From assembly GCA_015179045.1 (NCBI GenBank), contig WHUZ01000098.1:150589-214588 (forward strand): a stretch of DNA of 64,000 bases, in the 5' to 3' direction. This document shows positions 8,435-57,541 of the stretch, piece after piece. Position numbers and translations under genes: made by a program. A model generated the notes under the pieces. That model had not been told where the DNA came from. It did no database searches and saw only the letters and a program-made list of their open reading frames with translations. How positions within the stretch are numbered: the first letter of the stretch is position 1; every line of letters starts with the position of its first letter. This DNA comes from Kalaharituber pfeilii (Eukaryota > Ascomycota > Pezizomycetes > Pezizales > Pezizaceae).

Positions 8435-8751
8435 CAGGTGACCCTGGCGATAATGAAGCCAAGAATCGGACCTATTTTCTGTACTATAACCACTTTTCAC
8501 TATAACAAGGGCACTTTCCTTGGCTGTGTACACAAAGAATCCGGCCCATCTCTTCACTAGCCTCTCGCCATAGCCCCCAGGGCGGCACGCGAGTAATGAT
8601 ATAAAAAAAAAAAAAAAAATCTTCACTAGCCAGGTTTTCACTAAAAAGAGGTTCATTATAGCCAGCGTCACCTGTATCTCTCTTGTGATGAGTGAACTGT
8701 TGAAGTGAAATCGGTCAGATCCTTGGCCTTCATTATGGCCAGGCTCACCTG
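8435..8751. mobile_element. Mariner-type MITE with TA target duplication
   Basis: Inverted ends CAGGTGACCCTGG and CCAGGCTCACCTG (one mismatch, similarity about 38 bp inward) sit exactly inside TA dinucleotides (8433-8434 and 8752-8753), the Tc1/mariner signature. The body holds no ORF of substance. It was later hit by the micro-retroposon at 8563-8619; without that insert and its duplicated target the MITE is about 248 bp. Confidence 0.82.
8563..8619 (+). mobile_element. Micro-retroposon, LINE tail A (about 40 nt + poly(A))
   Basis: TSD TCTTCACTAGCC at 8551-8562 and 8620-8631. Between them lie only the terminal hairpin CTCGCCATAG...GGCACGCGAG, TAATGATAT and 17 A. The 5' end coincides with the base of the hairpin. 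Confidence 0.9.
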
Positions 8752-8753
8752 TA

Positions 8754-9488
8754 CTTGACACTTTGTTAGCCCCTGTTCGTTTTTTCCTTATCGCAAAACC
8801 TCGCATACAGCTGTTCGCAATAGCAGGGTGGCCCCTGGTCTGGAATTGGCATTGATTGGGTTTTCTATTACCGAACGTCTCGGGCGACTGAGAAGTCTGT
8901 TTACTACATACGTCGCTACAATCAGCCTTCCAATGGTCAACAAATATCAGGCGACGCAGCTTGTTGGATTATAATTTCTGTGCCCTCCTTGGTCATTGTC
9001 ATAGTTGGGGTGGATTTACAAGGCATACGTACTTTAACCTGACTCGATGACACTATTTTACGTGACTTTGAATCGTAGTCTAGGTGCCAAATAATTTGTG
9101 ATTACATAGGATATGAGGCAATAACCTACATCTACTTTCTCCCAGATTAGGTACTCTTTAAACCCTACTTCTGCGCATATATTCGGTTTTGTTCCTCTTT
9201 CTTCCCGACGAACCTCTGTTACGACGAAGACCTCTCAACTTAGAAACCGTCAGCCCTCAGTCTTCTCATTTTTGGTCATTGCTGCACATTCAATGCTTGG
9301 AAACAGCCTACATTGAAGTCCCTCATGTTACTAAGCCCTAGAATTCGCTCGTACTGTCTGCTGCTATATATATCGATAAGCACTTGCGACAGCGCCACAA
9401 ACGTCAAACGTGTGTTACAATAAATACTTATTTTACGTCTTCCTCAAAGATATACAATATACAGTAAAACCAGCCATAAGAACCTATT
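8754..9488. other. No feature recognised
   Basis: Mixed-composition DNA without domain-bearing ORFs or clear repeats. 9360-9480 is AT-rich and could be the promoter of the ORF that follows, if that ORF is real. Confidence 0.3.
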
Positions 9489-9893
9489 ATGGCATTTGAA
9501 GATTCCTCTCCCTCCAACCGGCGGCCACGACACCTTGAGGAACGACGAGGCCAGCAGCAAAGCGAACAGAACCTCAATGTAACGCGATCGGAGACGTGTG
9601 TGGCGATAGAAATGGAGCGGCCTGCAGTGAACGTGGATGTGGTGGAGTCGTGTGTTGCGATAGCAATGGAGCGGCCTGCAGTGGTGGAGACTACGTTGTG
9701 TGTGAAGAGGTGTCTTGTAAGGCCGCCGGTTATAGAGCAGGCGCGGCGCCTGGAGCGGCAGCAACTGGAGCTGCGACAACAGGAGCAGCGATTGGAGCAG
9801 CAGCAACTGGAGCAGCAGCAACTGGAGCAACAGCAACTGGAGGAACAGCAACTGGAGCAACAGCAACTGGAGCAACAGCAACTGGAACTGTGA
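9489..9893 (+). CDS. Gln/Glu/Leu-rich low-complexity ORF, unknown
   Basis: 134-codon ORF from ATG. The N-terminal 90 residues show no domain I know; two near-repeats (CVAIEMERPAV, CVAIAMERPAV) occur about 20 residues apart. The C-terminal 45 residues are tandem LEQQQ units encoded by the repeat CTGGAGCAGCAGCAA. A second frame (9596-9958) is equally open and reads Gly/Ala/Thr-rich because of the same repeat, so ORF length alone is weak evidence. Confidence 0.3.
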   Translation: MAFEDSSPSNRRPRHLEERRGQQQSEQNLNVTRSETCVAIEMERPAVNVDVVESCVAIAMERPAVVETTLCVKRCLVRPPVIEQARRLERQQLELRQQEQRLEQQQLEQQQLEQQQLEEQQLEQQQLEQQQLEL

Positions 9894-9900
9894 CAGCGAC
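9755..9900 (+). repeat. 15-18 bp minisatellite (CTGGAGCAGCAGCAA)
   Basis: About nine imperfect tandem copies inside the ORF above. It keeps two frames open on the plus strand and one on the minus strand. Confidence 0.8.
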
Positions 9901-9958
9901 TGTGCCGACTGGAGCAGCAATGCCAACTGAATCAACTACAACACTAGCTATAGAATGA

Positions 9959-10831
9959 GGAACAGAAGCCCGCATAGTTATCTAGGGGCTAAAGCCCAAT
10001 GTAGATCATAGGGGAGTCCATATAGGGGGACAAACAACCTGTTTGTTTTCTCAATATCGTATAACTCCGCTTGCAGCTGTTCACCATGGCAGGGCACGGA
10101 CAAACTTGGAGTATAGTTATTTTTTGTCTATTTTATGGAAGCGCCTGGCAGATTATGTTATCGTTTTCAGAATCTACTGTACTCGCTTATTCATTCTCAT
10201 ATATATGTGGACAACTCTGGGGCTCATTTACACTGCATTTGAAGACAATGGATTGTCAGCTAGACGGGGTGCTCAGCGTATATACTAAGAGAGGCCATGG
10301 AAGTGATATATTGCAATGGAGTAGTGTCTAGAGAAGCAAAGGACTCGGAGAAGAGGTTGCTATGATGCTTGAAAAAGGAAGTAGAAGGAACTACACATAA
10401 GGACCTGGGAAGAAGCAACTTGTCATAATCTTTAGTTTAGTTGTCAATTATATTAGTTACATGTCCTTTTTTTAGTTTCCCTGTTTCTAAGTTAAATTTA
10501 CTTCGCCTATCATCCCATTCCTTTCATATTACTACTTTATCCACTTGTGCTACGAACCTCAATAGTATGAGAATGGGGTATTGGAGATAATAATGTATGT
10601 AGAAGAGTAGTAGTCTATTTTTGGGTCACGGATATGGTCTACCAGCCTAGGGCAGCGGCGCATAACAGGGTCAAGTTGAGCTTCTACCTAACTATTGCTG
10701 GACGTACATACGCTGGGCATCCAGCGTGCGCTCCAGTCCCTCGGGAACCTCCGCCCAGCCGTTACCACGACGCCCGTCGGGAAATATTAGACTGCGATAC
10801 CGTGGTGGAAAGCTGCGAAAAGTAGGCATAG
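9959..10831. other. Gene-poor stretch with an eroded tail B
   Basis: 10040-10098 (minus) has T-rich DNA, ATAACTCCGCTTGCAGCTG and CCATGGCAGGGC between two copies of GGACAAAC, a decayed tail-B insertion. The 81- and 86-codon ORFs crossing it are shadows. Nothing else recognised. Confidence 0.45.
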
Positions 10832-11313
10832 AATGTACGGCAGTTGTGAAATCACTGTGGAAGCTTTCGTCCTTTTTTTTTTTTTTTTATATCACATGAC
10901 CCCGCGTGCGGCTGCTCGCCAAGGCAGGGCAAGCTTTCGTCCTGAAAAACATTTCCAATGGTGAGATCAAATTTGGGTGTGAAATGGAGCTGGTTGATTG
11001 TTGCGAGAGAGCCAGGGGAGCCCCTTTCAAGCCGCTCCGCGTTCGGAAGCCTACTAGTACACCAGCAGAACTCGCGAACTCGATCAGAGGAACCTCCGAT
11101 CGTCCTTCAGTGTCTGCACAAGCACTAAAGTCTCTATCAAAATGCTACAATCGACAGAGCCTATGCCAGAGCTGCATGAGTACCAGAGATCCCAGCAAAC
11201 AAATATACTCTTCGGTGGAAGTGTTATATCTAAGGCTCCTTCAGTCGGGAACCTGGTCAAAAATAGTTGAGTGGGGAAGACGCCAAGAAAAGTGCAAGGT
11301 CTGGGACTGTTGA
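10832..11313 (+). pseudogene. Unknown ORF interrupted by a micro-retroposon
   Basis: An ATG at 10832 opens MYGSCEITVEAFVL, which is cut at 10874 by the tail-B insertion and resumes at 10944 in KNISNGEIKFGCEMEL, ending at 11313. The insert plus duplicated target is 70 bp, so it shifts the frame. The pre-insertion ORF would be about 137 codons, Cys/Arg/Ser-containing, with no known domain. Whether it was ever a gene is open; the frame continuity across the insertion is the only argument. Confidence 0.3.
10874..10930 (-). mobile_element. Micro-retroposon, LINE tail B (about 42 nt + poly(A))
   Basis: TSD AAGCTTTCGTCCT at 10861-10873 and 10931-10943. The insert is a T run, ATATCACATGACCCCGCG and GCTCGCCAAGGCAGGGC. 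Its 5' end (GCCCTGCC on the minus strand) is the base of the tail-B hairpin. Confidence 0.9.
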
Positions 11314-11840
11314 AGAATATGCAGCGCTGAAGTGAAACATCGTGCACAGTGGTTGGGTGTGCTGAAACATATGCAACCTGAGCTGTGGCCATGATGCAGA
11401 CTGACGTTTCATGATTCTATGGTCTTCTATTTCCTATACCGATTATATCCTCTTCACCGTCTGAATCCGCTGCTATGCGCAACCTCATTCCGCACCAATG
11501 ATTGTTTAGTTGGGTACGAAGGTACTTCCTGAATTTTGCTGCATAAATAGGGCCGCTTTGGGACGCATATGTGGGGTTATTCTGTTAGAATTAATCAACT
11601 GTATCCCACCGCAATTTCACTCGTAATCTGTAGTTTACCACAGGGACTGCTATCCCCCGGCCACCCCCTCGTCAGACCCAGCCACTTCCCCTACTACTTG
11701 GCGGTTTGGTCAGGCACAATCGGATGCAGAAGACAAAGAGCAGAATCCGGCCAAGCAACCTTCCTACCACTAAGAACTAACTCCCCTTCCATCACCCCAA
11801 TTGAGAGGTTCTAGAGAAAGAAGCAGTTCACATTGTAGTA
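11314..11840. other. No feature recognised
   Basis: No domain-bearing ORF or repeat boundary could be supported. Confidence 0.3.
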
Positions 11841-11844
11841 CAAG

Positions 11845-12010
11845 GAATGACTTTAAGAAGAAACTAGGAAATATCCGCAATCAGCTGGAAGCTGCGAACA
11901 GGGATATAGGACAGATTACTAGGATTGACGGCTGTGGAGGAAGGAGACATTCATAGAGGAGGGGAAAATAACTAGCTCAATTGTGGTATATCCAGAGGAC
12001 CAGTAAAGTT
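11845..12010 (+). pseudogene. LINE-A ORF1 C-terminal fragment, decayed
   Basis: Translates as LEAANRDIGQITRI...EEGKITSSIVVY with a stop and a frame slip, matching LEAANQDLGRITGIRWLRK...EEGKKTSSVVVY of the better copy at 17940-18262. No tail or TSD is left. Confidence 0.65.
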
Positions 12011-12334
12011 CACAGAAAGAAAGTGAGATTGGAGGAAACTGGCGATGTCGGGTCACGTTACCTGTGCTCACTAGTGGTGTCCTATCGATACCAGTGGGAC
12101 AGAGCACATTGGTGTGCGTTATTGTGAATTTTGCGTGTTTGGGTTCGATATCCAATTATTGAACTTTGATAAGCATACGCATGCCACCTAACAGTAATCG
12201 AGTTGGCGCCGAGTCATGGGATCGGAACTATGATTTTGATAGAACTGCGGAGTAAGAAAGATTACTTGTCGGCGCCTCGGAGCAGGGACAGATAATTGGG
12301 GCGAACTCATAGTTAGCATACTTCATGACAATAC

Positions 12335-12645: not shown

Positions 12646-12939
12646 ACCAATCCCGTTGGAAAGAGATATTGCCTTGGAGGGGTTGGTGAAGAGGACGGTT
12701 GTGATCATGAGAATATTGGCTGAGGTGTTAGTATTATACTCACTACCAGCATAAGGTTTCACACAGGGGCAACAGTTGGAGTCGTCTGTGTAGAAAGGAG
12801 CTTTGTAGCTGAACAGACTCTCGCACAGTCCTTGCAACGTCATACTTTATGCTAGTAGCGAGTATGTTTGGGAGAGTAGCGGTGCAGAGGCTAAAATGAT
12901 CGGCGAAGAACGAGACTGAAGCCAAGAAGGTATATAAAT

Positions 12940-13691: not shown

Positions 13692-15626
13692 ATGTCCGCA
13701 CCTCTACGTGATACAGATCTGTTGGATCCCGACGCCTATCTCACCGATGATACGCTTGATACCTTGTGGCAGTGGTATTGGGCAGCAAACAAGGACAAAG
13801 TTGATCCCCAACTCATTTTCGGGAAGCTTGTTAATGCGGTATGCTGTGTACCTCCTTTGTCTTTTGCTCAATCGAAATTAGCATCCACAGCTTACATTGC
13901 TCTTGTGCACCTGCACGTATGTAATATAGACTCGGAAACCATACCGCGCCCACCTTGTGAAACCTTTAACCAGCAGCTCCAGCTTCGGAGACAATCCACA
14001 CCTACCAATTAGGACTGAAGCAGCCCCCTCCCCTTATATGCCACAATATGATGACGATAGTTCCACCATGACAGTTAAAGCCCAAGCTGGCAACTCTAGA
14101 AAAACAACTCGATAATAAACAGAGCGAGATTCAACAACCCGAGAAGTCCTCAAATGCCTTGACGGAAGAGAAACAGGATTTTGAGGCGAAGCTGATGTCT
14201 ACAATTGCAGAGTTGAACGCTAAACTCACAAATGCCGAAAGGGAAGTCAAAAATAAACAATGCAAGATTGACAGACTTTGGCAATCCTCCACTGCAATAC
14301 TAGTAAAGGACAACAAAGACCTTGAGGCGAAGCTGACGTCTACAATTGCAGAGTTGAACGCTAAACTCACAATTGCGGAAAGGGAAGTCAAAAATAAAGA
14401 ATGCGAGATTGACCGACTTCAGCAGTCCTTCAACATTCTAGAAAAGGACAATAGTGATCTCGTGGAGAAGCTGATGTCCACAATTTCAGAGTTGCACACT
14501 GAACTCACAATTGCGGAACAGGAGGTCAAATATAAAGGATACGAGATTGAACGACTACAGCAGTCCTCCAACTTACCGGAAAAGAACAACAGTGATCTCC
14601 AGGAGAAGCTGACATCCACAATTTTAGAGTTCAATGCTAAACTTGCGAAAGCAGAAGGGGAAGTTAAAAATAAACAAGGTGAGATTGGCTGAATTTGGTA
14701 GTCCTCCATTGTAAAACTAGTAAAGGACAACAAAGATCTTCAGGCAAAGCTGACATCTACAATTTCAGAGTTGGCCACTAAACTCACGAATGTGGAAAGG
14801 GAAGTCAAAAGTAAACAATGCGAGATTGACCGACTTCGGCAGTCCTCCAATGTACTAGAAACGGAAAACAAAGATCTCCAGGCGAAGCTGATATCTACAA
14901 TTTCAGAGTTGAAGACTAAACTCGCAAATGCAGAACAGGAAGTCAAAAATAAACAAGGTGAGATTGACTGAATTTGGCAGTGCTCCACTATAATACTAGA
15001 AGATCTCCAAAGCAAAGCTGACGTCTACAATTTCAGAGTTGGCCACTAAACTCACGAATGTGGAAAGGGAAGTCAAAAGTAAACAATGCGAGATTGACCG
15101 ACTTAGGCAGTCCTCCAATGTACTAGAAAAGTACAACAAAGATCTTCAGGCGAAGCTGAAGGAGGTCCAAGAGCAAGCGCAAGCTAATAAATCTCTGGCA
15201 ACAACCCTTGTTGCCATTAAATCTGCCTTTTTCGATAATAAATATATCCAATTAATCTCCGAGAAGAACTATGCTGGGGCAGGACCATCTACCGGAATCG
15301 CAGAGGGCGGCACTCTTAAACTTGAGCGGGACTATGCAAAAGGTACGATAGCAATAAGGTCAAGCAGTGGTGGCAATACATACTTGAGCATTGATGGGTC
15401 CTCAGTGCGTCCAGGAAGGCAGAATCCAGGCGGGACCATTGTGTTCACCAAGACGTGCGGAGCCAATGCATTGTTCCGAATTCGTATGAAGGACCACAAA
15501 AAGATGTATATTGAGTCTGTTGCCTTCCCTGGAAGATTCCTTACAATCAATAAGTGGATAGGGTACAAAGTTCAATTGCAGGGTGTAGATGAAGCGTGGG
15601 AAGAATTTCATTTAGTTGATCTGTAG
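13692..15626 (+). pseudogene. Coiled-coil / beta-trefoil-like protein, copy 1, disrupted
   Basis: ATG at 13692 starts MSAPLRDTDLLDPDAYLTDD...LWQWYWAANKD, a domain I cannot name. A GT-AG intron fits at 13839-13929, as in the paralogue at 22280. Then come a Ser/Pro linker, seven coiled-coil units (14159-15170) and a C-terminal domain of about 140 residues (15190-15626) with three NxYL(S/I)-type strand motifs (NKYIQLIS, NTYLSIDGSS, GRFLTINK), which looks like a beta-trefoil of the ricin-B/fascin type. Damage: one-base frameshift near 14070, stops at 14690 and 14969 (both TGAATTTGG), and a short deletion near 15000. Role unknown; trefoil domains often bind carbohydrate. Confidence 0.75.
14159..15165 (+). 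repeat. Seven tandem 138-141 bp coiled-coil units
   Basis: Each unit encodes about 46-47 residues of the form KLTSTISELNAKLTNAE then EVKNKQCEIDRLRQSS. Starts lie near 14189, 14330, 14468, 14606, 14747, 14885 and 15015. Copy 2 at 22.7 kb has only about two units, so the array grew in copy 1. Units 4 and 6 share the same stop-bearing variant, so at least one duplication came after that mutation. Confidence 0.85.
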
Positions 15627-17779: not shown

Positions 17780-18262
17780 TTTTTTTTTTTTTTTTTTTAT
17801 ATCAGTACTCGCATGCCGCCCTATGGGCTATGGCGAGGTTTCTATTAAAGGAACAAAAGAAAGAATTAACGGCTAGATACATGTAGTGCCCGCGTTGCTC
17901 ATCAGTGATGCGGGTGAAGCTCAGAACGGAATGGGCCCTTCACTTCCTGCCTCTTTCCCAGTCGTACTGCTCTGCACGGAGCCATCTTCCTCCCAGTCTC
18001 ACCCTATTACTCCTCGATGCCTCATCCAGGTACACCACCACCGAACTTGTCTTTTTTCCCTCCTCAAGTAAAGTGTCTTTTTTCCTCAGCCATCGGATCC
18101 CCGTGATCCTTCCTAGGTCCTGGTTGGCTGCCTCCAACCATCGTCGAACCTTCCCGAGGTCTTTTCTCAGGGCTATCCCGTGTACACAATGCCGATTTTT
18201 GTGGTGTTGGCATTGTGAGTGGTCAGAGGTGGGGATTTGGCTTTGTGTGTGTGGGGGGTTTG
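17780..18262 (-). mobile_element. ORF1-only LINE-A derivative, 5'-truncated, inserted in copia
   Basis: TSD TGTGAGGATCCGAT at 17766-17779 and 18263-18276. The insert has the C-terminal part of LINE ORF1 (HGIALRKDLGKVRRWLE, TGIRWLRKKD, KKTSSVVVYL, VRLGGRWLRAEQYDWERG), a stop at 17940, about 130 bp of 3' UTR and tail A with poly(A). No ORF2 lies between ORF1 and the tail. Confidence 0.88.
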
Positions 18263-18853
18263 TGTGAGGATCCGATGGATGAGTTGATTCCAATTGTGGG
18301 CTGCCTGCTTGAGTCCGTACAGTGCCTTTTTCAGCCTCCACGCTCTGTCACCTGTGGCATGCTGGTCCTTCACATATATTTCCTCATCCAATGGCCCATT
18401 AAGGAATGCAGACTCCACGTCAAACTGTTCCACTACCATCTCTCTTCGCAGAGTTTCACAGATCACCAGCCTCCACGACTCCTCCCGACAGACCGGCGCA
18501 TATGTCTCTGTAAAATCGATTCCTGGCCGTTGGGTGAAGCCGCGAGCGGTTAACCGAGCTTTATACCTCTTGGGGTCATCTGGCGCTTTCTCTTCCTTCT
18601 CCTTCAGTACCCATTTCGTATCTACTGCCTTCTTTCCAGCTGGCATGTCATCTACCCAATCAAATACTTCAAGCTTCTTCAGCTGTTCGAGCTCCCTGTT
18701 TATCGCCAGTTCACATTTTGACGCCTCCGGACTCTCCAGTGCTTCGGTTACAGTGATATGTGCCTCATGCACATACCCTGGGTCTTCATCCAGTCTCACC
18801 CTGGAATCAGTTCCTTTGTTTAATCTTGCAGATCGCCGCTGCTGTGGAAGTTA

Positions 18854-18880
18854 TTTTTTTTTTTTTTTTTTTATTTCATA
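18854..18880 (-). mobile_element. Shortest micro-retroposon: poly(A) plus about 8 nt of tail A
   Basis: T18 followed by ATTTCATA between CTGTGGAAGTTA (18842-18853) and CTGTGGAAATTA (18881-18892; one mismatch). It sits in copia-derived DNA. Confidence 0.7.
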
Positions 18881-19128
18881 CTGTGGAAATTAGTCTTGGC
18901 TCGGCTTCGCCGCCTCCTGAAACAACTGCCTTTCAGCGGCTCGTGCCGCTATGGCATCCGGGAATGTGCTTCCGAGGGTTTCCGTATCTCCCAGAGTGAT
19001 CCAGGAATACAGTACTCGGATGCCACATGGCGCATGCAACGAAATCGCATTGTGACATGTTTTCCATTTTTTTCCCGTGCACGCTGTGCTCCATGCACAT
19101 ATCGCGATTTTATTAATAGGATGTAGAT

Positions 19129-19419: not shown

Positions 19420-19782
19420 ATGTAGATACCTAGTTAATAAATCTAACCCAGCTTTGATGATGCTTTGTACATGTGGAGGTGGTTAGTCTAGTTGCAGAGT
19501 TTGGTGATATATAGTTGAGTTCTAATACCTTAGCAATGAATGTACAGTTATGGCACTGAAGAATTTTAATCTGCGGAGATTGTAGTATTGTACTGTTGTT
19601 TGCCCCATAAATCTGATCACGGGCTCCGTAAATAATTATTTGGTCACTAAGTCTCACAAAGCCATGCATAGCTAGAATATCTCAGTCTCGGAATGAGAAT
19701 ACCTGTAAACACCAAATAGTATGATTATTTCGCTGTTCGAGATATGCACAATTCCTTATACTGTATAGTCTATGTAGCTCTT

Positions 19783-19822
19783 TTTTTTTTTTTTTTTTTT
19801 TTATTTCATTACTCGCATGCCG
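19783..19822 (-). mobile_element. Micro-retroposon, tail A (about 20 nt + poly(A))
   Basis: TSD CTATGTAGCTCTT at 19770-19782 and 19823-19835. The insert is T20, ATTTCATTACTCGCATGCCG. The 5' end falls in the 3' arm of the hairpin. Confidence 0.88.
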
Positions 19823-20034
19823 CTATGTAGCTCTTGCTGACAGCTCTTGCTGACAGCATGTAGGTATGGCTTGATGTGCATACGCATCACAGGTGTGCCA
19901 AGGCCCGAAGAACTAGGTTAGTAGGAAGGGGAGGGCCTTCGGGGAGTGATAGGAATTTTGGAATGGGCGAGGGGTTAGCCCCGGGGATTTACTTCTATTG
20001 TTCCGTACTTGTACTTTGTTTTGATGTAACTAGA

Positions 20035-26636: not shown

Positions 26637-26651
26637 GAAGGTGCGATGATC

Positions 26652-26709
26652 CTCGCCATAGCCTACAAGGCGGCATGCGAGTAATGGCATAAAAAAAAAA
26701 AAAAAAAAA
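26652..26709 (+). mobile_element. Micro-retroposon, tail A (39 nt + poly(A))
   Basis: Perfect 15-bp TSD GAAGGTGCGATGATC (26637-26651, 26710-26724). The insert starts exactly at CTCGCCATAG, the hairpin base, and ends GTAATGGCAT plus 19 A. Confidence 0.92.
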
Positions 26710-26765
26710 GAAGGTGCGATGATCACCTATGTCGTATGCTTGGCAGTCCATATTTCATGATAGGG

Positions 26766-27446: not shown

Positions 27447-27599
27447 ACGCTGATCTACATTCTGGTGCAATAATTACGCGGTGCCTCTCGGTCGATCAAG
27501 GCAAAAACTCTAACTTCCTTCATCACAATCAACCAATATAAAGCCAAGCGCTTTGGATGCCAGCGTCGCCAGATTAATGGACCAAAATATTTAACGTTT

Positions 27600-27652
27600 T
27601 TTCTTTCTTTCTCTTTTGTTTTTTTGGTCAAGTAACCCAGTATACAGGCGGG
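27600..27652 (-). mobile_element. Micro-retroposon, family C tail
   Basis: 15-bp TSD AAAATATTTAACGTT (27585-27599, 27653-27667) around a T-rich run, GGTCAAGTAACCCAGTATAC and AGGCGGG. Confidence 0.82.
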
Positions 27653-28031
27653 AAAATATTTAACGTTGACTTGCTGTCATGAAAGTATTTTCTTGACCAC
27701 CTTTGTGTATTGTGAACCGCAAAAACTCTGCTCTCTCTTAATCCCTCATACATGAAGAAACAACAGGGAACTTGTTGAAAGTTCCCTGTAACAATGATTG
27801 CAAAATCCAACCAACTAGCATATAGAACCGAATTACCCTCACAATTAGCCCGTTTCCAATCTTCAGCATGTCCGAGTCCACCTTTCCAATACGATCTCCA
27901 TCTGCCTTTTCACGCTGATACCCTAAGACACCAGTACCAGAATCCACCACTCAGAGAAGCCTTTCCATCTAATATTCCAATGCGAGATAACCATCTAATC
28001 CTGTCGGGCTGCACGCTCTTGACCATCAAAT

Positions 28032-36194: not shown

Positions 36195-36545
36195 ATCTTG
36201 CAACCAGTGGCACCAACCTGTTTCTCGTACAACGGCAAAGGCAGAAAATAATACTGTAGTCTGGGCACGAGAACAGCACCAACCCTATCACCCTGCCGTA
36301 ATAACGTTGCATTTTTATCTTTGCAATAGTTCTTCCGTTCGTCTAACTTGTTGTTTTCTGTTTGCACCCTGCTATAGGCTATTGCCTGAGTTAGGCTATG
36401 TGGTCACTTGGCAGCCCTATGATGTATTTCGAGTGGATATCCCTTCTGATAATGAACACCTTGACATTATTCCCCGTTCTTATAGCCGACGTCCGCGTCA
36501 GACTATCAGTTTCTGCTATAGGCTATGTATTTGTAAATGTCGGAT

Positions 36546-36607
36546 TTTTTTTTTTTTTTTTTTTTTTATTTCATTAATCGTATGCCGCCCTATGGGCTAT
36601 GACGATG
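36546..36607 (-). mobile_element. Micro-retroposon, tail A, variant stem ATCGT/ACGAT
   Basis: TSD TTGTAAATGTCGGAT (36531-36545, 36608-36622). The hairpin stem differs from the usual CTCGC/GCGAG but still pairs. 5' end at the hairpin base. Confidence 0.9.
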
Positions 36608-36698
36608 TTGTAAATGTCGGATGCCGGCATCACCATGGTTTCGTTAAATGTCCATATAGATGAGAATCCCTGTGAAAAAGGAAGGTATAGAGAAGCCA

Positions 36699-43915: not shown

Positions 43916-44216
43916 TCTGTATTAAACTAGCTAGCAGTATGTACATTATATTGCTGAATCTCTACTCTTCTTGATATAAAAAAATACTCCATATAAGAAT
44001 ATCTGCCTGCCGCCCGACGATGTACTTATATCGAAAGTGTACTGTATGTAAGTTTGTGGTCCATCCCTCCTGTATTAGAACTTCATGTACGTACAACCTC
44101 TCCACGCATTATACTTCTATTACTGCCCTAACTGGATCAAGCAGCCAGCCCCGACACTATCCTGTACGAATTTTTTTTTTTTCCCCGTATGTCTCCCCAT
44201 CGTCGTTCGTCCTCTT
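42267..44216. other. No supported gene
   Basis: AT-rich intergenic DNA. 43700-43760 has a T run followed by CCACCCTACGATTTCC; 43800-43860 repeats GCATCAATGAAAAAAA three times; 43890-43915 is a 26-nt A run. None shows tail A or B. Confidence 0.35.
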
Positions 44217-44266
44217 CATAGGGCGGCATGCGAGTAATGATAGTAAAAAAAAAAAAAAAAAAAAAA
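44217..44266 (+). mobile_element. Micro-retroposon, tail A (28 nt + poly(A))
   Basis: TSD GTTCGTCCTCTT (44205-44216, 44267-44278). The insert starts at CATAGGGCGGCATGCGAG, i.e. at the hairpin loop. Confidence 0.9.
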
Positions 44267-44929
44267 GTTCGTCCTCTTGGGCTTCTCCAGCGCACAGCAC
44301 ATGAAGATTAAGTATTCCGCACTACACTCCTCTCCGCAGGAACAACAAACTCTTCCGTCCGCAGATCCTCCTCCACATGTCCCCGCCGTCCAGTTCGCAG
44401 CCAGGTGCAGTTAGTGAGGCCCTCATATAGCTACCCCACTTTACGAACTTTCTCTCCCAAAGCCATTTTTTTCCCTCCATTCGTTGCTTTTACCGACTAA
44501 CTCTGGTCGTAGACCGCACTCCCTGGCCTATCCATCGTACCTTACGCCCAACATGCGTCCTGATCACCCATCCTTGATCCCAGCGATCTCTCGGCCCCAC
44601 ATCCCTGCAACGGCCCCTCAGCAAGTGTTTCAACTCTCCATATTTCATTCCCAATCCGGCTCTCCTTTTCTCAGTAAAATCCCAATTATCCGGTGCCGAA
44701 CCTGGAGGTTATTCCCACCATTGCCAGTTTAACGTGCTCAACATGCTCAACATGCTCAATATGCCCAATCACATGACTCCCCGCGGACAATCAAATCGGC
44801 AAAACCCAACAGTCCAACATTCGTATGTCGTATTCCCTATTCATTTATACACCCCAAGGCGCAATTGCGCTGCGCACCCCCCCCCACCGCATGAACTATG
44901 CTTAAGAACACTAGCCCATATAAGCAACC

Positions 44930-46983
44930 TCACTGCTGTAATTCTGCCACCGAATGTCGGGCCCCAGGCAACTCATGATACACCCGTGGGACATCCTCGT
45001 GCGGAAACTCCACCGGCTCAAAATTGACCGGCACGATATCCTGTGCCGGATTGTAAAACCCTGGCAGAGGCTGCACTTGGCGGGAAGCAAGCTCCTGGGG
45101 TACCACAGCCTCGAGTTCGGGCTTCCCACGGTACTCGGTTCCATCGGATTCCGCCCTGGCGCGCCTCTTGCTGCGCCGCCGGAGGTAAACAACCAAGAGG
45201 ATGAGTACTCCCAAAGCGATGAGACCCCCAAGGATGCTGCCTACGATCACGCCCACAGAGGGCACGGGATCCGGAGAGGGTTCGGGGACTTCAGTGGGCG
45301 TGCTGGTTGTAGTTGTCTGAGGTGCCAGGATTTCCTTGAGTGTAGGGTCAACGTGGGCTTGAGGCAATGTGAGGGTTGTTCCACCATTCTCGCTGCGGAG
45401 AGCCAGGTAAGTTAGTTCCAAAACACTTGGCCGCAATACAACCAAATAACAAGAATACTGGGGGCACGTACTCTCCTCCAACCACGTCATATACCACTTT
45501 CGGGACCTTATAGGGCACTTGATCATTACTAAACTCATATCTAGTCGTCCACTCTATTGCCTGCAAGTCAAACAACCTGACACCGTTATGCGGGTTACAC
45601 TGCTCCTCCGGGGCATCCCAGTCACGGCCCTGATATACCACCATATACCGGTTCTGCATGACAGCGCAGCGGTGCAAGTCTAGCTTCGTTGACCGCCCCA
45701 CAACGTCCATGCCGCCCATTGACACGGGGCCGATCCACGTGAACGATGGCAGGGACAGGATCCACATATCCCCGTGCACCGTTGGCCCGGTCTGTCCCCC
45801 GTACATGTAGATGTTGTGGCTCGAGTTGTCGCGCGCGCTGGCCGCCACGGCGCAGTGCCCGGTCCGCCCAGAATCACTGGGTGTGCTGTTGCCGTTGCTG
45901 GCGGGGGAGGTTTCCTGCGTGAACCACGTACTCGAGGCGATGTCGTAGACATTGATGGTATGGAGAGATGGCTGCGGTGCAGTGGTACATGCCATGGGTC
46001 AATGATCAATCTTGTATAATGCTAGTGGAGGAAGCTCTTTGGCCCACCTTGTCGTGAATAGTACTCTCCGACACCTCGCCCCCAATCAAAACCAACATGC
46101 CCTCCTTGCCCACTCCCCCAGGTATACCAACTCACCGCGCTCCAGTCCAGGCACTACCTCGCTGTTCACTGTGTTGACAATCTCGCCCACAGGCTTCTCT
46201 TTTCCGTGCATATCGAACCTGACCAGTGCCATTACTGGCACGCTCATATTCTTAGTCCCACCATAAACCCAGCCCACCTCGCCATCCTGATCCACCGCAA
46301 CCAACCCATCCTGAGGTGTCTCCTTCCCGAGTCCACTTTCCCAAGGCGGGCCCCACGCATGGCGGCTGAGGTCGAACCGCTGCACCTTGGTGTCTCCATC
46401 CGGCGGCCGCTCCTCCTCGGGTAGAATGTGCCCGGTGTCGTTGAAAAAGGTACCTCCTGACGTACCCGATCCGAACTGGTATAGCCCGTTAGCGTTGGCG
46501 AACAGCTGGGCCCGAGAGAGTATCGGCACATGCCGGTCCACGCGGAGCGCTTTGGTGATGTTATTTTGGGAGAGGTCGAGCGAGCGGGAGAAGTCCAGGA
46601 TGCGCAGGTGGCCATCTGTGGTGAAAGCTCTGTTGGCAACACGAAATTACATGTAGGCTTCGGGGGAAAGGGGAGGAAGGGAGGCCCATACTTCTGTAAG
46701 GGAGGCCCACACCTCCCATGAGCGGGCTGTGGTTGGACTGCAAGCGATTTTTCTCATCTACCAGGGCAATGTCGCCGCCCATCACGTACATCTTATGGCG
46801 ATGCACTGCGACTATATACGCAGACGTGTTGACACCACGAGGATTAGCACCTGCCGGCGAACGGACTATAACGATATTACAACGGTCATGGTACTCACTG
46901 CTGTGCCCCCATAGCCAACACAAATCCTTCTCCCAGTCGATGACGGTGGGCGAAATCAATTCATCATCCTGTAAATTGGACAT
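44930..46983 (-). CDS. Kelch-repeat single-pass membrane protein, one frameshift
   Basis: Exons 46983-46713, 46627-46048, 45971-45472 and 45392-44930 with GT-AG introns of 85, 76 and 79 nt. Kelch-type blades: YIVAVHRHKMYVMGGD, LYQFGSGTSGG, VGKEGMLVLIGGE, NIYMYGGQTG, MVVYQGRDW. One transmembrane helix follows (VGVIVGSILGGLIALGVLIL), then RRRSKRR and a tail of about 75 residues. The exons total 1,814 nt, one short of a multiple of 3: at 46116-46120 a G5 run needs one more G to link RGELVYL to GVGKEGML. This is a real frameshift or a homopolymer error. The N-terminus is uncertain; AVFLLYCTHSLSLRAAAVAE just upstream of the 46983 ATG looks like a signal peptide without a visible start. Likely a surface receptor-like protein. 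Confidence 0.78.
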
Positions 46984-49666: not shown

Positions 49667-50399
49667 TTTTTTTTTTTTTTTTTTTTTTTTTCTTTTTTTT
49701 TTCATTAATCGCGTGCCGCCCTATGGGCTATGGCGATGTTTAGATACATGGAGTAGATAAATAAAATTAAACACCCCCCCATCTATTCTTCTCGTGCCCA
49801 TTCCAGAATCTCCCGTACGTTTATTCCTTTATCGATCTGTCTTATTCCTTCCGCCCCCCCGCATTTCCTAGCCCACGCCTTGCAGTCTTTCCGAACATGT
49901 TCCCAGTTTTCCGGGGCTTCCCCGCACCATCGGCATTCCGGCGACTCGGCTCTTCCTACGTGGTGTCTCCATTCTTTCAATCCCTTGTTTCCTAGCACCC
50001 CCGCCAGCGTCGAGAGATACCACCTCCGGCCTGCAATTTGTAAGGGTCGGTAGTTCAGGTCTGCTTGATTTCTCTCCGTGGCTCGCAGTGCCTTATAGTC
50101 TTGTCTCAGACCCGCTTCTGTTACGGTTTCGTCTTCGTATTGTAATGCTGTGCCGACTTTGGCCGCCCGGTCCGCCTCCGTATTCCCTTTCACCCCCTTG
50201 TGGCTTTTAACCCATATCACCGCCAGGTCTAGGTCCCCTCTCGCTACCCGATTCTCCCATCTCTTCCTGACCAAGGCGGATGCGCCGTCCACCGTCGGGT
50301 TTCCCCTTCCTATTCTCCAAAGTCTTGCTATTGCCGTTTGTGAGTCGGTGACGATCAGCAGCTCGCCTTGTTGTTCCATCGCTTCGCTTATTGCTATCG
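49667..50399 (-). mobile_element. LINE-A, 5'-truncated copy with the ORF2 3' end
   Basis: TSD TTGTAATTCATA (49655-49666, 50400-50411). The 733-bp insert holds the RNase H end of ORF2, a short 3' UTR, tail A (stem ATCGC/GCGAT) and a long poly(A) broken by one C. It shows that tail A belongs to a LINE with ORF2. Confidence 0.92.
49783..50379 (-). pseudogene. LINE-A ORF2 C-terminus: RNase H and zinc knuckle
   Basis: 198 open codons. LLIVTDSQTAIARL and WVKSHKGVKGNTEADRAAK are RNase H motifs with the catalytic D and the NTEAD block; the first motif strand is cut off. A zinc-knuckle-like CRWCGEAPENWEHVRKDC follows. This matches the C-terminus of Tad-type LINE polyproteins, which have an RNase H domain. 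5'-truncated, so not functional. Confidence 0.88.
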
Positions 50400-50581
50400 T
50401 TGTAATTCATAGGGAATCCCCTACGTACATGGTTTACCACTAATTACATTTGTTTCTTCTGTACTAACAAGTGCATTGCTGCTTCCTCCACAGACTTGTC
50501 CTGGATTGAGGCAATATGGATGATATTATATGGAGCATGACATTGAGTAGAGCATTTCTGGCGGTTTTAAGCACTGGCATC

Positions 50582-53242: not shown

Positions 53243-53272
53243 AAGCTAGGCTAAGTGACGCTAAGCTATATA

Positions 53273-53584: not shown

Positions 53585-53959
53585 TATCTAAAGCGGCCGT
53601 TAGTCTACTAGTACATACAAACTGCTATAGCCTGCTGGCGCTGGGCTCAAGGAAGTCGCAGGTCACGAGGTTATACAGTAAGCGAATACTGGGAATGAGG
53701 GTAATTAGTTTAAAGAGTCTGCTACTCTCTAAGTTAATTTGAACTTACCATCTTTAAGACCCTTAATAGCCTCCTGATTTTTTGCTTCTTAATCTTTTGC
53801 TCTGGCTGGGTTCTATAGAACTCTGAGAATAATTGTTGTTGCGTTGCTGTGCCCTACAATGCCCCGCAACCATAGTATGTAGAACATAGTATGTATACCC
53901 ATAAATACAATTATCGCTTCCTGGGGCAGCAGGAGGCAGAATGTGCATGTTGTTTTTGT

Positions 53960-53997
53960 GGCACGCGAGTAATGAAATAAAAAAAAAAAAAAAAAAA
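53960..53997 (+). mobile_element. Micro-retroposon, tail A (19 nt + poly(A))
   Basis: TSD ATGTTGTTTTTGT (53947-53959, 53998-54010). Insert GGCACGCGAGTAATGAAAT plus A19: only the 3' arm of the hairpin. Confidence 0.9.
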
Positions 53998-54010
53998 ATG
54001 TTGTTTTTGT

Positions 54011-55312
54011 TCACGTGCACCGAACTCGATGTTTATAGTACAGTAGTACAATACAGGTAATAGAGTAGGGGGATGGAGGCCCCACGAAAAGGCATAAGCC
54101 TGCATCACATATCCAATGTTTTGCAGCGGATAAAGATTGATGGAACTCTTTTTTTCCCTTCCCAAGAGGCTAAGCCAGTGGGTCAGGCACTGGTTATTTT
54201 GCGTTCCTATATAACCACTGCTCTGATTCGTCGAAGTTACCAGTCCCTTTTCAACAATCTTATTGGACTGGTCTACTGGGCATGATCTTCTTTATTGGGC
54301 CAATCTGTCTCGTCTGGGTAGGACTTGTGATAGGAATTGAAGTAAATAAACCTAGGTACCTACCACCACCTATGCTGTTCTCAATTCATTACAGTTATAC
54401 ATTAGCTCCCAACGACAAGCTAAACTTCTCCATCCGAGTTCGGGAGTAGTAAGCCTTCCTCTGGGTGAGCTTCTCGGTTGCCTTGCCATAGCCCTTAGGG
54501 CGGCATGCTAGTACTGACAAAAAAAAAAAAAAAAAAAAAAAATCTAATCATACGGAGTCGCGGCATTCCAATTCGTCGTTTCTAATTCGAAAGGATGTTG
54601 AACAATGGTCTGCCCCAGCAGGGTGTGAGAATTGAACCTGGGCCCCCAATCTTTTATACTTCGCCATGGCCACTTGCTGTAACCTTTGGGACCAGTGACA
54701 ACAGACGAATGACTCCGGGTCAGTTCAGATAAGTAGACACCGCCATATACTCGTACGTGCCGCCCCTCAGACTACTGTCAGACAGCCCTCTCCTATGCAC
54801 GCCACTCAGCAGCTGCTTCGCCAACCTCTCTCATTGCCTCTTCTACAGCCTCTCTCATTGCCTCTTCTACAGCAGCTTTCACTTTTAACTCATTCATCCT
54901 GTTGGGCTATGACAACGAGCGGTTACCATATGTCAGAGAACGCTATGTACATACATCGTTTCACCTCCACCTTAAATACGAGTCGAGCTCACGCTCCAGC
55001 TCGGCTCGAGCTAGCTCGTGCCGCTCAGTACTAAATTGGCTTCTCTGTCGACTGTACGCCGCATTCATATTGCCACCTCATAATTGTATAGGTTTCAGTT
55101 CCCACTGACCTTTCATATTCTTTGCTCCCGCAATATTTTCGAACCGACCAGAGCAAATGAAATTTACGTTACTCAAAATTTATGAGCCAAAGCACAGTCA
55201 TACAAGTGAAATTTCTCACTGGTGATATTGGCAGGGCATAGAGAGAAGATCCGTTGTGCGGAGTAGATGTATGTTGCCGAATAGAGTATGTAGGCTGGGA
55301 GGACTGTAAGTG

Positions 55313-55315
<3 letters not shown>
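54011..55315. other. No supported gene; tail A and MITE fragments
   Basis: 54483-54541 is a tail A (GCCATAGCCCTTAGGGCGGC, A23) without a clear TSD. 54830-54880 repeats CTCTCATTGCCTCTTCTACAG. 54978-55029 is the right end of a hAT MITE (CTCGAGCTAGCTCGTGCCGC). Confidence 0.55.
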
Positions 55316-55343
<28 letters not shown>

Positions 55344-55388
55344 GGTATCACATAACCCTGCTGCAGCTGTTCGCCATGTCAGGGCAAG
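55316..55388 (-). mobile_element. Micro-retroposon, tail B
   Basis: TSD TGTAAGTGGGT (55305-55315, 55389-55399). T28, GGTATCACATAACCCTGC, GTTCGCCATGTCAGGGC. 5' end at the hairpin base. Confidence 0.88.
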
Positions 55389-55559
55389 TGTAAGTGGGTG
55401 AGACTATGTGATAATAACTACAAGTGGACATTGGCGTGAGTGCACCGTGGATAGGCTGCACCCGGTGGGCTGCAGGTGTTCTCCAAGGCAACCAGGGCGG
55501 AACCAGGTGGACCGCGGCTGAACCATCCAGTCCGCGCCTTGCCAGTTGCCCATAGCTTA

Positions 55560-55648
55560 AGCCTGTCTCCGGCTTGCCCAGGGACCCTGCCATGGCTTGG
55601 CGCTGCAAGCGGGGTTACGTGATTTATAAAAAAAAAAAAAAAAAAAAA
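55560..55648 (+). mobile_element. Short tail B retroposon
   Basis: Imperfect TSD GTTGCCCATAGCTT / GTTGCTCATAGCCTT. The insert begins at AAGCCTGTCTCC, as at 36097, and lacks 10 bp of the stem-loop region (CGGCTTGCCC). Confidence 0.82.
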
Positions 55649-55663
55649 GTTGCTCATAGCCTT

Positions 55664-56175
55664 CAGACCATGACAATGACACTGCGACCGTAGAAAATCC
55701 AGGATGACAATTCCGTAGTAAAATTGTTTCCACAATTTTTACGTATTTTCTACGGTTCTTACGTATGCGACTGGAGCAAACTATTTTGAACCTCACTATT
55801 CAGTTTTCTTTCGTTTGACATTAATCTCATTGAATTAGGATATGCTCTCCAGACTGCAATGCTTGTTGGAACGCCGATTTTGACATCTTACAAATTTTGA
55901 AAGTTTGGCATTAGTTTTGTAACCAGTTAACAGACTTCCCGCTTCCAAACGAGCGAGTAAACACTAGTGTATGAAGAACAGTAGTCTAATTGCATTGTAT
56001 GGGACAGCCTATATGAATTCTCTGGCTACCAATTATCGCCTTGGCATAGGCACAAAGTACTCACATTCAGTGCTTAAGGTGCTAACCGCCCTTTGTGAGT
56101 ACACTTGACTTCTCCGCCTGTGATTACTTCGGAGCGTAGGAAGTTACCCATATTTTTTGTACTACAGTGGGGATC
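55664..56175. other. No feature recognised
   Basis: Includes an imperfect repeat around TTTTTACGTATTTTCTACGG / TTCTTACGTATGCG. No ORF with a domain. Confidence 0.3.
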
Positions 56176-56226
56176 TTTTTCTTTTTATTTCATTACTTGC
56201 ATGCCGCCTTATAGGCTATGGCGAGG
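56176..56226 (-). mobile_element. Micro-retroposon, tail A (40 nt, interrupted poly(A))
   Basis: TSD TACAGTGGGGATC (56163-56175, 56227-56239). 5' end at the hairpin base. Confidence 0.92.
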
Positions 56227-56612
56227 TACAGTGGGGATCGCTGGAGCTCACCCTTTTAGAAGGGAGCCTACTTTAACAACCAACCCGGAACCACTACTCA
56301 AGAGCTTCCAGCTCCGGTCCTGTACTGGCAATCGACTTACGATATGCCCAGACTTGTACTTGTGCAGCTGGTTTTGACGCCCCAACAAGTTATCGCACTC
56401 CTCCTCACTTGCTACTACCTGTCCCACTACCTGTGACATGGACCACCTGTGTAATGCGACTGCCAGCATCCCAGCTGCTGCACAGGGGCCACCACGAACA
56501 AAGGATGAACTGGAAGGCCCTAGAACCCAAACAGTGATATTGATAACTCCACTGACCCCTGCCCTGTGCCACGGCCAAGCGCCCTACAGCCTCCACACAC
56601 CAAGCCACGATC

Positions 56613-56778
56613 CCTTAAGATGCGACGGTTTTGACAAGTGATACGAGATGTGAAAGAGTTGACGGGGATCTAAATCTGTTTCTGACTTAATTTCACTTCA
56701 TTTTCATTATGTACCTAGCCTCGCCATAGCCCATAGGGCGGCACGCGAGTAATGATATAAAGGAAAAAAAAAAAAAAA
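56613..56778 (+). mobile_element. LINE-A 3' UTR insertion, 166 bp
   Basis: TSD AAGCCACGATC / AAGCCACGACC (56602-56612, 56779-56789). Tail A and poly(A) preceded by about 105 bp of 3' UTR. Confidence 0.8.
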
Positions 56779-57029
56779 AAGCCACGACCGCCGGCAACCC
56801 ATGACCGCTGGCAAACCACAACCAATAGCCTGCAAGCTCATAGAACCGGCTAGCTATAGGTAGCTAGCAAGCTGCCAGTATATGGTTGGGGACATCTGTA
56901 CGCGGAGTATGATAGGGGCGACATTTGGTTCGATGACTAAGCACTCCATTTACCTGGGTACATGCACGTTCTGCCCCATAGTATGCAGCAAGTTTGAAGG
57001 TATTCTTCCCACCTCCACCGCTCCATCGT

Positions 57030-57135
57030 TCTCCCACAGCTCTACCGCTTCTACCACTCTACTACTCCTACTGCTCACACTGTTGCTACTGCTGCTACTG
57101 CTCGCACTACTGTTACTGCTCCTACCGCCCGATCA
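57030..57135 (+). repeat. CTACTGCT minisatellite
   Basis: Imperfect CTACT, CTGCT and CACTGT units encoding a Leu-rich run in one frame. No evidence that it is part of a gene. Confidence 0.6.
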
Positions 57136-57205
57136 CTCTGTCACACTCTACATATCCTAGCCTAGCTGTGCTACTTGTTAATTTGCATATATCTATAGCA
57201 TCAGT

Positions 57206-57243
57206 GACCTCGCCATAGCCCATAGGGCGGCACGCGAGTAATG

Positions 57244-57278
<35 letters not shown>
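57206..57278 (+). mobile_element. Micro-retroposon, tail A (43 nt + poly(A))
   Basis: TSD AGCATCAGT (57197-57205, 57279-57287). GACCTCGCCATAGCCC...GGCACGCGAGTAATGAAATT then about 30 A. Confidence 0.9.
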
Positions 57279-57280
<2 letters not shown>

Positions 57281-57486
57281 CATCAGTCGCACACAACATA
57301 AAACCAAGTAGTAAAGGGGTATTGATAAGGGATGTACTAGTACTCAGTACCTGTACATATTCTATTCCATTTTTAGTTAGCTGCTCTTCTTTTTTAGCTA
57401 GACTACTATATACTATACTATATTGGGTGATTACTAAAGGACGACATTTATGACCCGTCTTCATATAAACTCCTGATCTTTAACTC

Positions 57487-57489
<3 letters not shown>

Positions 57490-57519
<30 letters not shown>

Positions 57520-57541
57520 TTCATTACTCGCGCGCCGCCCT
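57490..57541 (-). mobile_element. Micro-retroposon, tail A (about 24 nt + poly(A))
   Basis: TSD CTTTAACTCTAT (57478-57489, 57542-57553). T28, ATTTCATTACTCGCGCGCCG, CCCT. Confidence 0.9.

What the first reader, a model, noticed from the sequence alone, without database searches (positions are those of the whole stretch)
8563..57541. Micro-retroposons: two dozen insertions with only 8-45 nt of LINE tail, with clean TSDs
At 8563, 10874, 18854, 19783, 26652, 27600, 36546, 44217, 50582, 53960, 55316, 56176, 57206, 57490 and 58080 the inserted DNA is just poly(A) and a few dozen nt of a LINE 3' end, yet each is bounded by a direct repeat of about 9-15 bp. Ordinary 5'-truncated LINE copies have broad length distributions; here the very short class dominates. 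Either these are a discrete parasite or the host LINE aborts very early and still completes insertion. The density (about one per 3 kb) would make them a major mutagen in this genome.
Basis: partly seen in the sequence, partly recalled or inferred. Interest (0 to 1): 0.88.

Follow-up and report, generated by a model that had tools for sequence, protein, structure and literature searches.

The report
Hairpin-only micro-insertions made by LINEs
In a desert-truffle genome, jumping-gene machinery repeatedly pastes in only its own 40-letter RNA hairpin plus a poly(A) tail, with clean duplications at both ends, giving a distinct class of extremely small retroposons.

Summary
The window comes from Kalaharituber pfeilii (78 Mb assembly). 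All 15 listed sites are short LINE-tail inserts with A tails between direct repeats of 9-15 bp. In 333 kb of sample, 94 of 177 poly(A) tracts have a TSD; 45 of those 94 inserts are 60 nt or shorter. Permuted flanks give none at any length up to 200 nt. Eight micro-inserts have paralogous empty sites, one of them gapped at the junction.

The new point is where they begin. The LINE families end in a small hairpin followed by poly(A). 32 of the 45 start at the 5' foot of that hairpin; 12 start inside it or just 3' of it; one is something else. Family A has no 5' end between -4 and -81. In one lineage about 322 of 363 genomic copies lack LINE sequence upstream, and their start is exact to the nucleotide. 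Micro and long inserts share tail length, TSD length and nick motif. Many LINE lineages make them, so they are not one parasite.

Best reading: the LINE machinery inserts its bare terminal hairpin, probably from RNA that ends at the hairpin foot. That RNA end is inferred, not shown.

The parts
8551..8631 (+). Micro-insert, family A: 40 nt + A17 (8563-8619), TSD TCTTCACTAGCC; starts 1 nt before hairpin foot; empty paralogue in L026
10861..10943 (-). Micro-insert, family B: 42 nt + A tail, TSD AGGACGAAAGCTT; starts at hairpin foot
18842..18892 (-). Shortest insert in the window: 8 nt (TATGAAAT, the linker 3' of the hairpin) + A19, imperfect 11/12 TSD (TAAYTTCCACAG)
   Evidence: by reading; not found by the automatic TSD search
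19770..19835 (-). Micro-insert, family A: 20 nt + A22, TSD AAGAGCTACATAG; starts inside the hairpin 3' side
26637..26724 (+). Micro-insert, family A: 39 nt + A19, TSD GAAGGTGCGATGATC; starts at hairpin foot
27584..27667 (-). Micro-insert, family C-like: 27 nt + interrupted A-rich tail, TSD AACGTTAAATATTTT (15 bp)
36531..36622 (-). Micro-insert, family A (A-U closing pair): 40 nt + A23, TSD ATCCGACATTTACAA; hairpin foot
44205..44278 (+). Micro-insert, family A: 28 nt + A22, TSD GTTCGTCCTCTT; starts in the hairpin near the loop
50571..50634 (-). Micro-insert, family A: 23 nt + A19, TSD GATGCCAGTGC; starts inside the hairpin
53947..54010 (+). Micro-insert, family A: 19 nt + A20, TSD ATGTTGTTTTTGT; starts inside the hairpin
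55305..55399 (-). Micro-insert, family B: 45 nt + A29, TSD ACCCACTTACA; starts about 3 nt before hairpin foot
56163..56239 (-). Micro-insert, family A: 40 nt + interrupted A tail, TSD GATCCCCACTGTA; starts 1 nt before hairpin foot
57197..57287 (+). Micro-insert, family A: 43 nt + A31, TSD AGCATCAGT; starts 3 nt before hairpin foot
57477..57553 (-). Micro-insert, family A: 23 nt + A29, TSD ATAGAGTTAAAGA; starts at the 3' side of the hairpin
58066..58146 (-). Micro-insert, family B: 39 nt + A18, TSD AAAAGGCAGAGAAG; hairpin foot; empty paralogue in L017
36083..36208 (+). 77-nt family-B insert with 14-bp TSD that starts at the foot of a stable hairpin further upstream (TTAGCCTG..GGGCTA)
55544..55660 (+). 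71-nt family-B insert, TSD 12/13, starting at the same upstream hairpin; below the TSD score cut-off, so not among the 94 counted
49667..50399 (-). Ordinary 5'-truncated family-A LINE copy (697 nt + A36, TSD TATGAATTACAA) that carries most of the RNase H ORF 49783-50406; the long counterpart

Best explanation
These are genuine target-primed retroposition events made by the genome's own LINEs (RT plus RNase H; Tad1-like by recall). The inserted cDNA is just the 3'-terminal hairpin of the LINE RNA, 30-odd nt plus a short linker, and the poly(A) tail. Shown: insertion with TSD; empty sites; the same nick motif, TSD length and tail length as long LINE copies; 5' ends focused on the 5' foot of the terminal hairpin; production by many LINE lineages. 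Inferred: the focus arises because the template RNA itself begins there. LINE RNA is cut or decays back to the foot of the hairpin, which the LINE protein is expected to bind; that stub with its poly(A) is then a complete template. The smaller set of inserts that begin inside the hairpin or just 3' of it would be reverse-transcription stops at or within the stem.
For: TSDs far beyond chance and empty paralogues for 8 of 44 short inserts tested, one gapped at the junction. 5' ends relative to the hairpin foot: family A 15 within -3..+3, then none until -82; family B 13 within -3..+5, then -36 and -39, which are at the foot of a stable hairpin further upstream, then -92. Micro (n=45) and long (n=42): A-tract median 20 and 21, TSD median 13 and 13, nick context pyrimidine|A (C or T at -1 in 93% and 88%) with C at +4 in 47% and 40%. 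Hairpin A covaries: 27 double-changed cells against a shuffle mean of 8.1, 0 of 2000 shuffles reaching it (47 of 49 distinct sequences). Nucleotide-exact start: of 363 copies of one B haplotype, 41 have the LINE marker upstream; of the other 322 only 43 have G at -1, although the LINE template has G there. An RT that stalls on a hairpin should stop on its 3' side, not after copying all of it (reasoning). Zebrafish LINE proteins bind such a stem-loop (PMC4176376, abstract read).
Against: No RNA data: a free hairpin-poly(A) RNA is not shown. Family A starts vary over several nt, so the end is exact only where counts could be made, in one B haplotype. 5'-exonucleases usually stop several nt before a structure (recall), which fits family B poorly. 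The 5' ends of longer inserts do not sit at hairpin feet (0 of 23, 1.68 expected; a weak test, since it also failed to score two known upstream-hairpin starts), so the effect is special to the 3'UTR hairpins. One 40-nt insert (L017) ends at an internal LINE-like site and lacks the terminal hairpin. Twelve of 45 start inside the hairpin or 3' of it. Family B's outer stem shows no double changes.
Confidence: 0.55

Rival explanations
1. Hairpin-escape abortion: the template is full-length LINE RNA, but the reverse transcriptase, tethered to the hairpin, lets go once it has copied and unwound it, so many events end at the foot. This is comparable to abortive initiation before promoter escape.
For: 5' ends cluster just past the hairpin, while longer inserts show no hairpin preference. 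Template switching of a fungal LINE RT next to predicted hairpins is reported for MGL (PMC2104539, abstract and one section read).
Against: Exactness at one nucleotide in the B haplotype, and the second, small cluster at an upstream hairpin foot, are not expected from release after unwinding.
Confidence: 0.2
2. A discrete self-propagating micro-SINE: 42-nt hairpin elements are themselves transcribed (from outside promoters), processed and mobilised by the LINE, independently of new LINE insertions.
For: The TCAYGTGA group is almost purely micro among the first 100 listed B places (5 with LINE upstream against 43 without; Fisher p 2.6e-7 against the TTAYGTGA group); one exact 39-mer has 363 copies and about 322 lack LINE upstream; exact 5' end.
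Against: LINE-linked copies exist for that haplotype (41) and for a second lineage (18 exact, beside 75 in all). Many separate haplotypes in both families make micro-copies. 40 nt leaves no room for a standard pol III internal promoter (recall).
Confidence: 0.15
3. cDNA trimming: longer cDNA is made, but its protruding 3' end is trimmed back to its own folded hairpin before second-strand synthesis.
For: Would also give ends at a hairpin foot, including the upstream hairpin cluster.
Against: No sign of the same at other structures (weak); needs an extra nuclease step; not tested here.
Confidence: 0.08
4. Ordinary 5' truncation by random RT drop-off, or capture of fragments during break repair, with the peak an artefact of detection.
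For: Short gaps make TSDs easier to see; 5'-truncated LINE copies are common.
Against: The TSD search reached 7.5 kb upstream where the stretch allowed and found 49 of 94 inserts longer than 60 nt. No family-A 5' end lies between -4 and -81 while 15 lie at the foot. Shared nick motif and 13-bp median TSDs.
Confidence: 0.02

Closest known systems
5'-truncated LINE (non-LTR retrotransposon) copies, Tad1-like
   Same: 3'-anchored, poly(A), TSDs of about 13 bp, same nick motif as longer copies of the same LINEs
   Different: A separate class of about 40 nt whose 5' end is set by the terminal hairpin; a review seen in passages gives truncated copies as 100-1,000 bp (PMC3747384), and a mouse study seen in passages treats L1 fragments of 100-400 bp as short (PMC11084082)
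Stringent-type LINEs and their SINEs with a 3' stem-loop (zebrafish/eel L2, plant L1, fungal Tad1/SINE pairs)
   Same: LINE 3' end folds into a stem-loop expected to be recognised by the LINE protein (PMC4176376 abstract; PMC5135761 and PMC3747384 passages)
   Different: Here the stem-loop plus poly(A) alone is inserted, with no pol III-derived body
Template-switch chimeras of the Magnaporthe LINE MGL
   Same: Fungal LINE, events focused next to predicted hairpins, 14-bp direct repeats on one tripartite element (PMC2104539)
   Different: Those join two or three RNAs and carry 230-5461 nt of MGL; here a single stub of about 40 nt
Tailless retropseudogenes / truncated tRNA-SINE retroposons
   Same: Short LINE-mobilised RNAs (mentioned in a passage of PMC3747384)
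   Different: They lack poly(A) and come from tRNA-type RNA; ours keep poly(A) and come from LINE 3' ends

Membership tests
5'-truncated LINE insertions (TPRT products) | 3' end of a LINE followed by poly(A), flanked by TSDs | tested here: met
   families A and B have long copies in the same genome
5'-truncated LINE insertions (TPRT products) | Same endonuclease site and TSD length as longer copies | tested here: met
   pyrimidine|A, +4 C, TSD median 13 in both classes
5'-truncated LINE insertions (TPRT products) | Broad spread of 5' ends | tested here: not met
   focused on the hairpin foot
SINE | Body from a pol III RNA (tRNA, 7SL, 5S) with internal promoter | tested here: not met
   44 of 45 inserts of 60 nt or less are 6-55 nt of a LINE 3' end, one an internal LINE-like end; no Rfam match in the window at gathering thresholds. 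No promoter scan was made
SINE | Short, non-coding, 3' end shared with a partner LINE, mobilised in trans | tested here: inconclusive
   3' end shared; trans mobilisation not separable from LINE by-product
Stringent-type LINE (3' hairpin recognition) | Conserved 3'-terminal stem-loop with compensatory change | tested here: met
   family A: (47 of 49 distinct sequences, kept by a filter on the 3' arm). Family B folds similarly but its outer stem shows no double changes in 30 of 36 distinct sequences, so B is unproven
Stringent-type LINE (3' hairpin recognition) | Protein binds the stem-loop and needs it | not testable with these tools
   needs binding and retrotransposition assays
Tad1-like LINE | RT followed by RNase H in one ORF | tested here: met
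   family B ORF in L045: RVT_1 and RNase_H. Family A: only the RNase H coding end seen
Tad1-like LINE | Place in the RT phylogeny | not tested
   no tree built; the clade name is recalled

The most novel reading that the evidence does not exclude
The 3' hairpins of several LINE families in this truffle are released as discrete RNAs with an exact 5' end, and with their poly(A) tail serve as self-sufficient templates. In the TCAYGTGA group they have become exceptionally small self-maintaining retroposons: 42-nt micro-SINEs with hundreds of near-identical copies that outnumber LINE-linked copies about eight to one.
Probability: 0.2. Interest if true: 0.87.

Novelty: new variant of a known kind. 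Interest (0 to 1): 0.66.

Why it matters
It gives a natural, genome-scale readout of how little a LINE needs to complete an insertion: a terminal hairpin and poly(A), sometimes less. It makes the old question of why LINE copies are 5'-truncated (RNA end, RT release or cDNA trimming) testable, because the candidate mechanisms predict different RNA 5' ends and in vitro products at one known nucleotide. Inserts of about 60 bp in total (hairpin plus tail) with a TSD are easily missed by repeat annotation, so the class may be overlooked in other fungi (inference; no other fungal genome was searched).

Tried and rejected
Random artefact or chance repeats: rejected. One homogeneous parasite: rejected for the class as a whole by haplotype sharing, kept open for the TCAYGTGA group. 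General arrest of RNA decay at any hairpin: of the 41 longer inserts (61-3000 nt, TSD score 11 or more) a longer homologue was found for 23; 0 of 23 start at a hairpin foot, 1.68 expected. Inner-stem test of family B failed because I set the pairs wrongly and the script stopped; not repeated. Their listings and the passages I opened held no paper on hairpin-foot or about 40-nt LINE insertions, but several used clumsy terms and only the first rows of long listings were shown, so this is weak evidence of novelty. Passages of PMC7550596, which names K. pfeilii, gave nothing on its LINEs. No related fungal genome could be searched.

Rows dropped before counts: L001-L008 and L029 (contained in other loci or in the window), one tract too near a locus end (178 to 177), duplicated tracts; in the pair counts 2 of 49 family-A and 6 of 36 family-B distinct hairpins. 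Long-insert TSDs include an expected nine or so chance hits, mostly above 800 nt; the four inserts above 3200 nt are the most doubtful. In the empty-site search an L021 match within a tandem repeat of the same locus was not counted.
Full report
WHERE IT IS. The window is G000:C359:150589-214588 of a 78,031,657-base, 360-contig assembly. A kelch-type ORF at 45348-45998 (-) matches at 99% identity (over 78% of the query) a Kalaharituber pfeilii protein on a contig of 214,588 bases, the coordinate at which the window ends. The host is therefore taken to be the Kalahari desert truffle, Pezizomycetes (class name recalled).

CHECK OF THE OBSERVATION. Listing all A/T runs of 9 or more shows that many are preceded by one of two tails. 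Family A is (C/A)TCGCCATAGCCCATAGGGCGGCAYGCGA(G/T)TAATGATAT(A)n. Family B is (A/G)CCCTGCCATGGCGAACAGCTGCAAGCGGGGT(T/C)ACGTGAT(A)n. A rarer family C is like TCCCTGCCATAGGCTGGTAGCCTGTATGCGGGGTTACGTGAAT(A)n. An automatic TSD search recovers 12 of the 15 listed sites. The other three (18854 with an 11/12 repeat; 27600 and 56176 with interrupted tails) were confirmed by reading, the last two also by the tail-blind repeat scan. Insert bodies are 8-45 nt.

STATISTICS. I added 20 stretches of up to ten kilobases anchored on tail A and 20 loci anchored on a LINE reverse transcriptase (one of these, L029, lies in the window and was dropped). The sample is 332,949 bases. After removal of duplicates 177 A tracts remained. 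With a strict score, 91 have a TSD. Length bins: 0-15 nt 1; 16-33 nt 11; 34-45 nt 27; 46-60 nt 3; 61-100 nt 2; 101-200 nt 6; 201-400 nt 12; 401-800 nt 9; 801-1600 nt 5; above 1600 nt 15. With 3' flanks permuted among tracts (20 rounds) the mean is 0 in every bin up to 200 nt and 9.25 in all, mostly above 800 nt. Allowing slightly weaker repeats for inserts of 60 nt or less gives 94, of which 45 are 60 nt or less. Leaving out the RT-anchored loci the figure is 44 of 85, and leaving out also the anchor elements 40 of 72, so the peak is not made by the anchoring.

EMPTY SITES. For the 44 inserts of 100 nt or less with strict TSDs, the two flanks were joined with one TSD and compared with the sample. 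Eight have an uninterrupted paralogue elsewhere: L020 29-nt insert (L013, 92.6% identity over 296 columns), window 8563 (L026, 85%, small gaps nearby), window 58080 (L017, 80%), L012 23 nt (L028, 84%), L017 42 nt (L026, 79%, with gaps), L017 35 nt (L010, 75%, gapped at the junction and so the weakest), L018 42 nt (L018, 68%) and L016 18 nt (several LINE copies, 66-79%). The others found no such paralogue in this small sample.

WHERE THE INSERTS BEGIN. Folding shows that the LINE 3' ends form a small terminal hairpin directly before the unpaired linker and poly(A), and that family B has further stable hairpins upstream; in one of four family-A examples a competing fold is predicted. Relative to the first base of the hairpin, family A 5' ends fall at +3 to -3 (15 inserts), then none until -82. 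Family B 5' ends fall at +5 to -3 (13), then -36 and -39, the foot of an upstream hairpin, then -92. The +4 and +5 cases can be read as 0 if a few bases shared by target and LINE are given to the insert (my reading). Sorted by hand, 32 of 45 micro-inserts begin at the foot, 11 inside the hairpin, one in the linker 3' of it, and one is an internal LINE-like end. Under a uniform model over the foot window plus the next 78 or 88 nt, windows chosen after seeing the data, the concentration has p 5e-17 (A) and 3e-12 (B).

GENOME-WIDE. Tail-A hairpins number 2,699 by an exact pattern and tail-B hairpins 2,847, each against 0 for the reversed pattern. Of the B hairpins, 931 carry the LINE sequence CCAGGGRC directly upstream. 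In my sample that marker was present in 12 of 14 long B copies outside the RT-anchored loci (counted by eye), so by counts roughly 60% of B hairpins are bare; in the sample itself it is 11 of 25, one of them judged without a TSD. Of 41 sampled A hairpins 11 are micro. Together this suggests on the order of 2,000-2,500 near-intact micro-copies; this is an extrapolation. For one B haplotype the 5' end can be read from counts alone: 363 copies of GCCCTGCC..., 41 with LINE upstream, 84 with a further G. Hence only 43 of 322 copies without the LINE marker have the template's G at -1 (13%, below the 25% chance level), while all 17 listed copies in C1-C2 (to 643,596) carry the first G. Their start is therefore exact to the nucleotide.

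SAME MACHINERY. Micro (45) and long (42) inserts do not differ notably in A-tract length (median 20 and 21), TSD length (13 and 13) or nick context (C/T before the nick, A favoured after it, C at +4). Family B long copies encode RT and RNase H in one ORF, with homologues some of which also carry endonuclease domains. Family A long copies encode an RNase H end. Hairpin A is supported by compensatory changes (C-G/A-T at the closing pair 31/14 of 47, C-G/T-A at the inner pair 33/12; 27 double-changed cells against 8.1). Hairpin B shows no double changes in its outer stem.

ONE PARASITE OR MANY SOURCES. Micro-inserts show 11 A haplotypes and 13 B haplotypes in the sample; 4 and 3 are identical to long copies, and all but one of the others are within 3 differences of one. 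So many LINE lineages give rise to them. Lineages differ strongly: among the first 100 listed B hairpins, TTAYGTGA tails are 31 with LINE upstream and 21 without, TCAYGTGA tails 5 and 43 (Fisher p 2.6e-7). For the CTTGGCGAGCAG lineage, 18 LINE-linked exact copies stand beside 75 in all. In the A lineage with the CCCCCAGG loop, 6 of 8 listed copies have LINE upstream. The near-pure micro group leaves room for a self-propagating micro-SINE.

MECHANISM. An RT moving from the poly(A) meets the 3' side of the hairpin first. Stops caused by structure should therefore lie on that side, and the 12 inserts of 6-29 nt broadly fit this. The main class has copied the whole hairpin and ends at its far foot, which is most simply the 5' end of the template. 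I favour a hairpin-poly(A) stub made from LINE RNA by cleavage or arrested decay and used in normal target-primed insertion (0.55). RT release after the hairpin, cDNA trimming and an independent micro-SINE are rivals. Against a general decay-arrest model, longer inserts do not start at hairpins (0 of 23), so the terminal hairpin must be special, as expected if the LINE protein binds it. Such binding is reported for zebrafish LINEs (PMC4176376, abstract), and fungal Tad1 is named in a passage on LINE families with such 3' ends (PMC5135761, passage cut at its start), but binding is not shown here.

NOVELTY. Short LINE truncations, 3' stem-loops and LINE-derived SINE tails are known. A discrete, hairpin-delimited class of about 40 nt, exact in its 5' end in one lineage, arising from several LINE families in one genome, I did not find in ten searches of the open-access library (listed in Tried and rejected); that is limited evidence. 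I class it as a new variant of a known kind.

Noticed in passing
L017 (-), about 2673: A 40-nt insert with a 12-bp TSD whose 3' end is an internal LINE 3'UTR-like site (...CCGCGGGCATCATGT + A13) instead of the terminal hairpin; looks like premature polyadenylation of family-A LINE RNA.
   Followed up: partly
G000:C1 and C13: Tail-A copies are strongly clustered: in C1 (2.99 Mb) 24 of 26 listed hits lie below 0.56 Mb, and in C13 the listed hits begin at 1.19 Mb. Tail-B copies are less so (several beyond 0.56 Mb in C1).
   Followed up: no
window 62626-62801: Eleven perfect tandem copies of a 16-bp unit CCACACTCACATTTAC.
   Followed up: no
window 14184-15159: 138-bp tandem repeats in an open frame (coiled-coil look) with a similar, shorter relative near 22509-23396.
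   Followed up: no
window 2-2755 (-): Ankyrin-repeat ORF with a NACHT-like ORF upstream at 2093-2755 (by eye, not tested).
   Followed up: no
window 17940-18850 (-): Copia-type RT fragment (RVT_2) abutting LINE ORF1-like sequence in a neighbouring frame (the ORF1 likeness is by eye).
   Followed up: no
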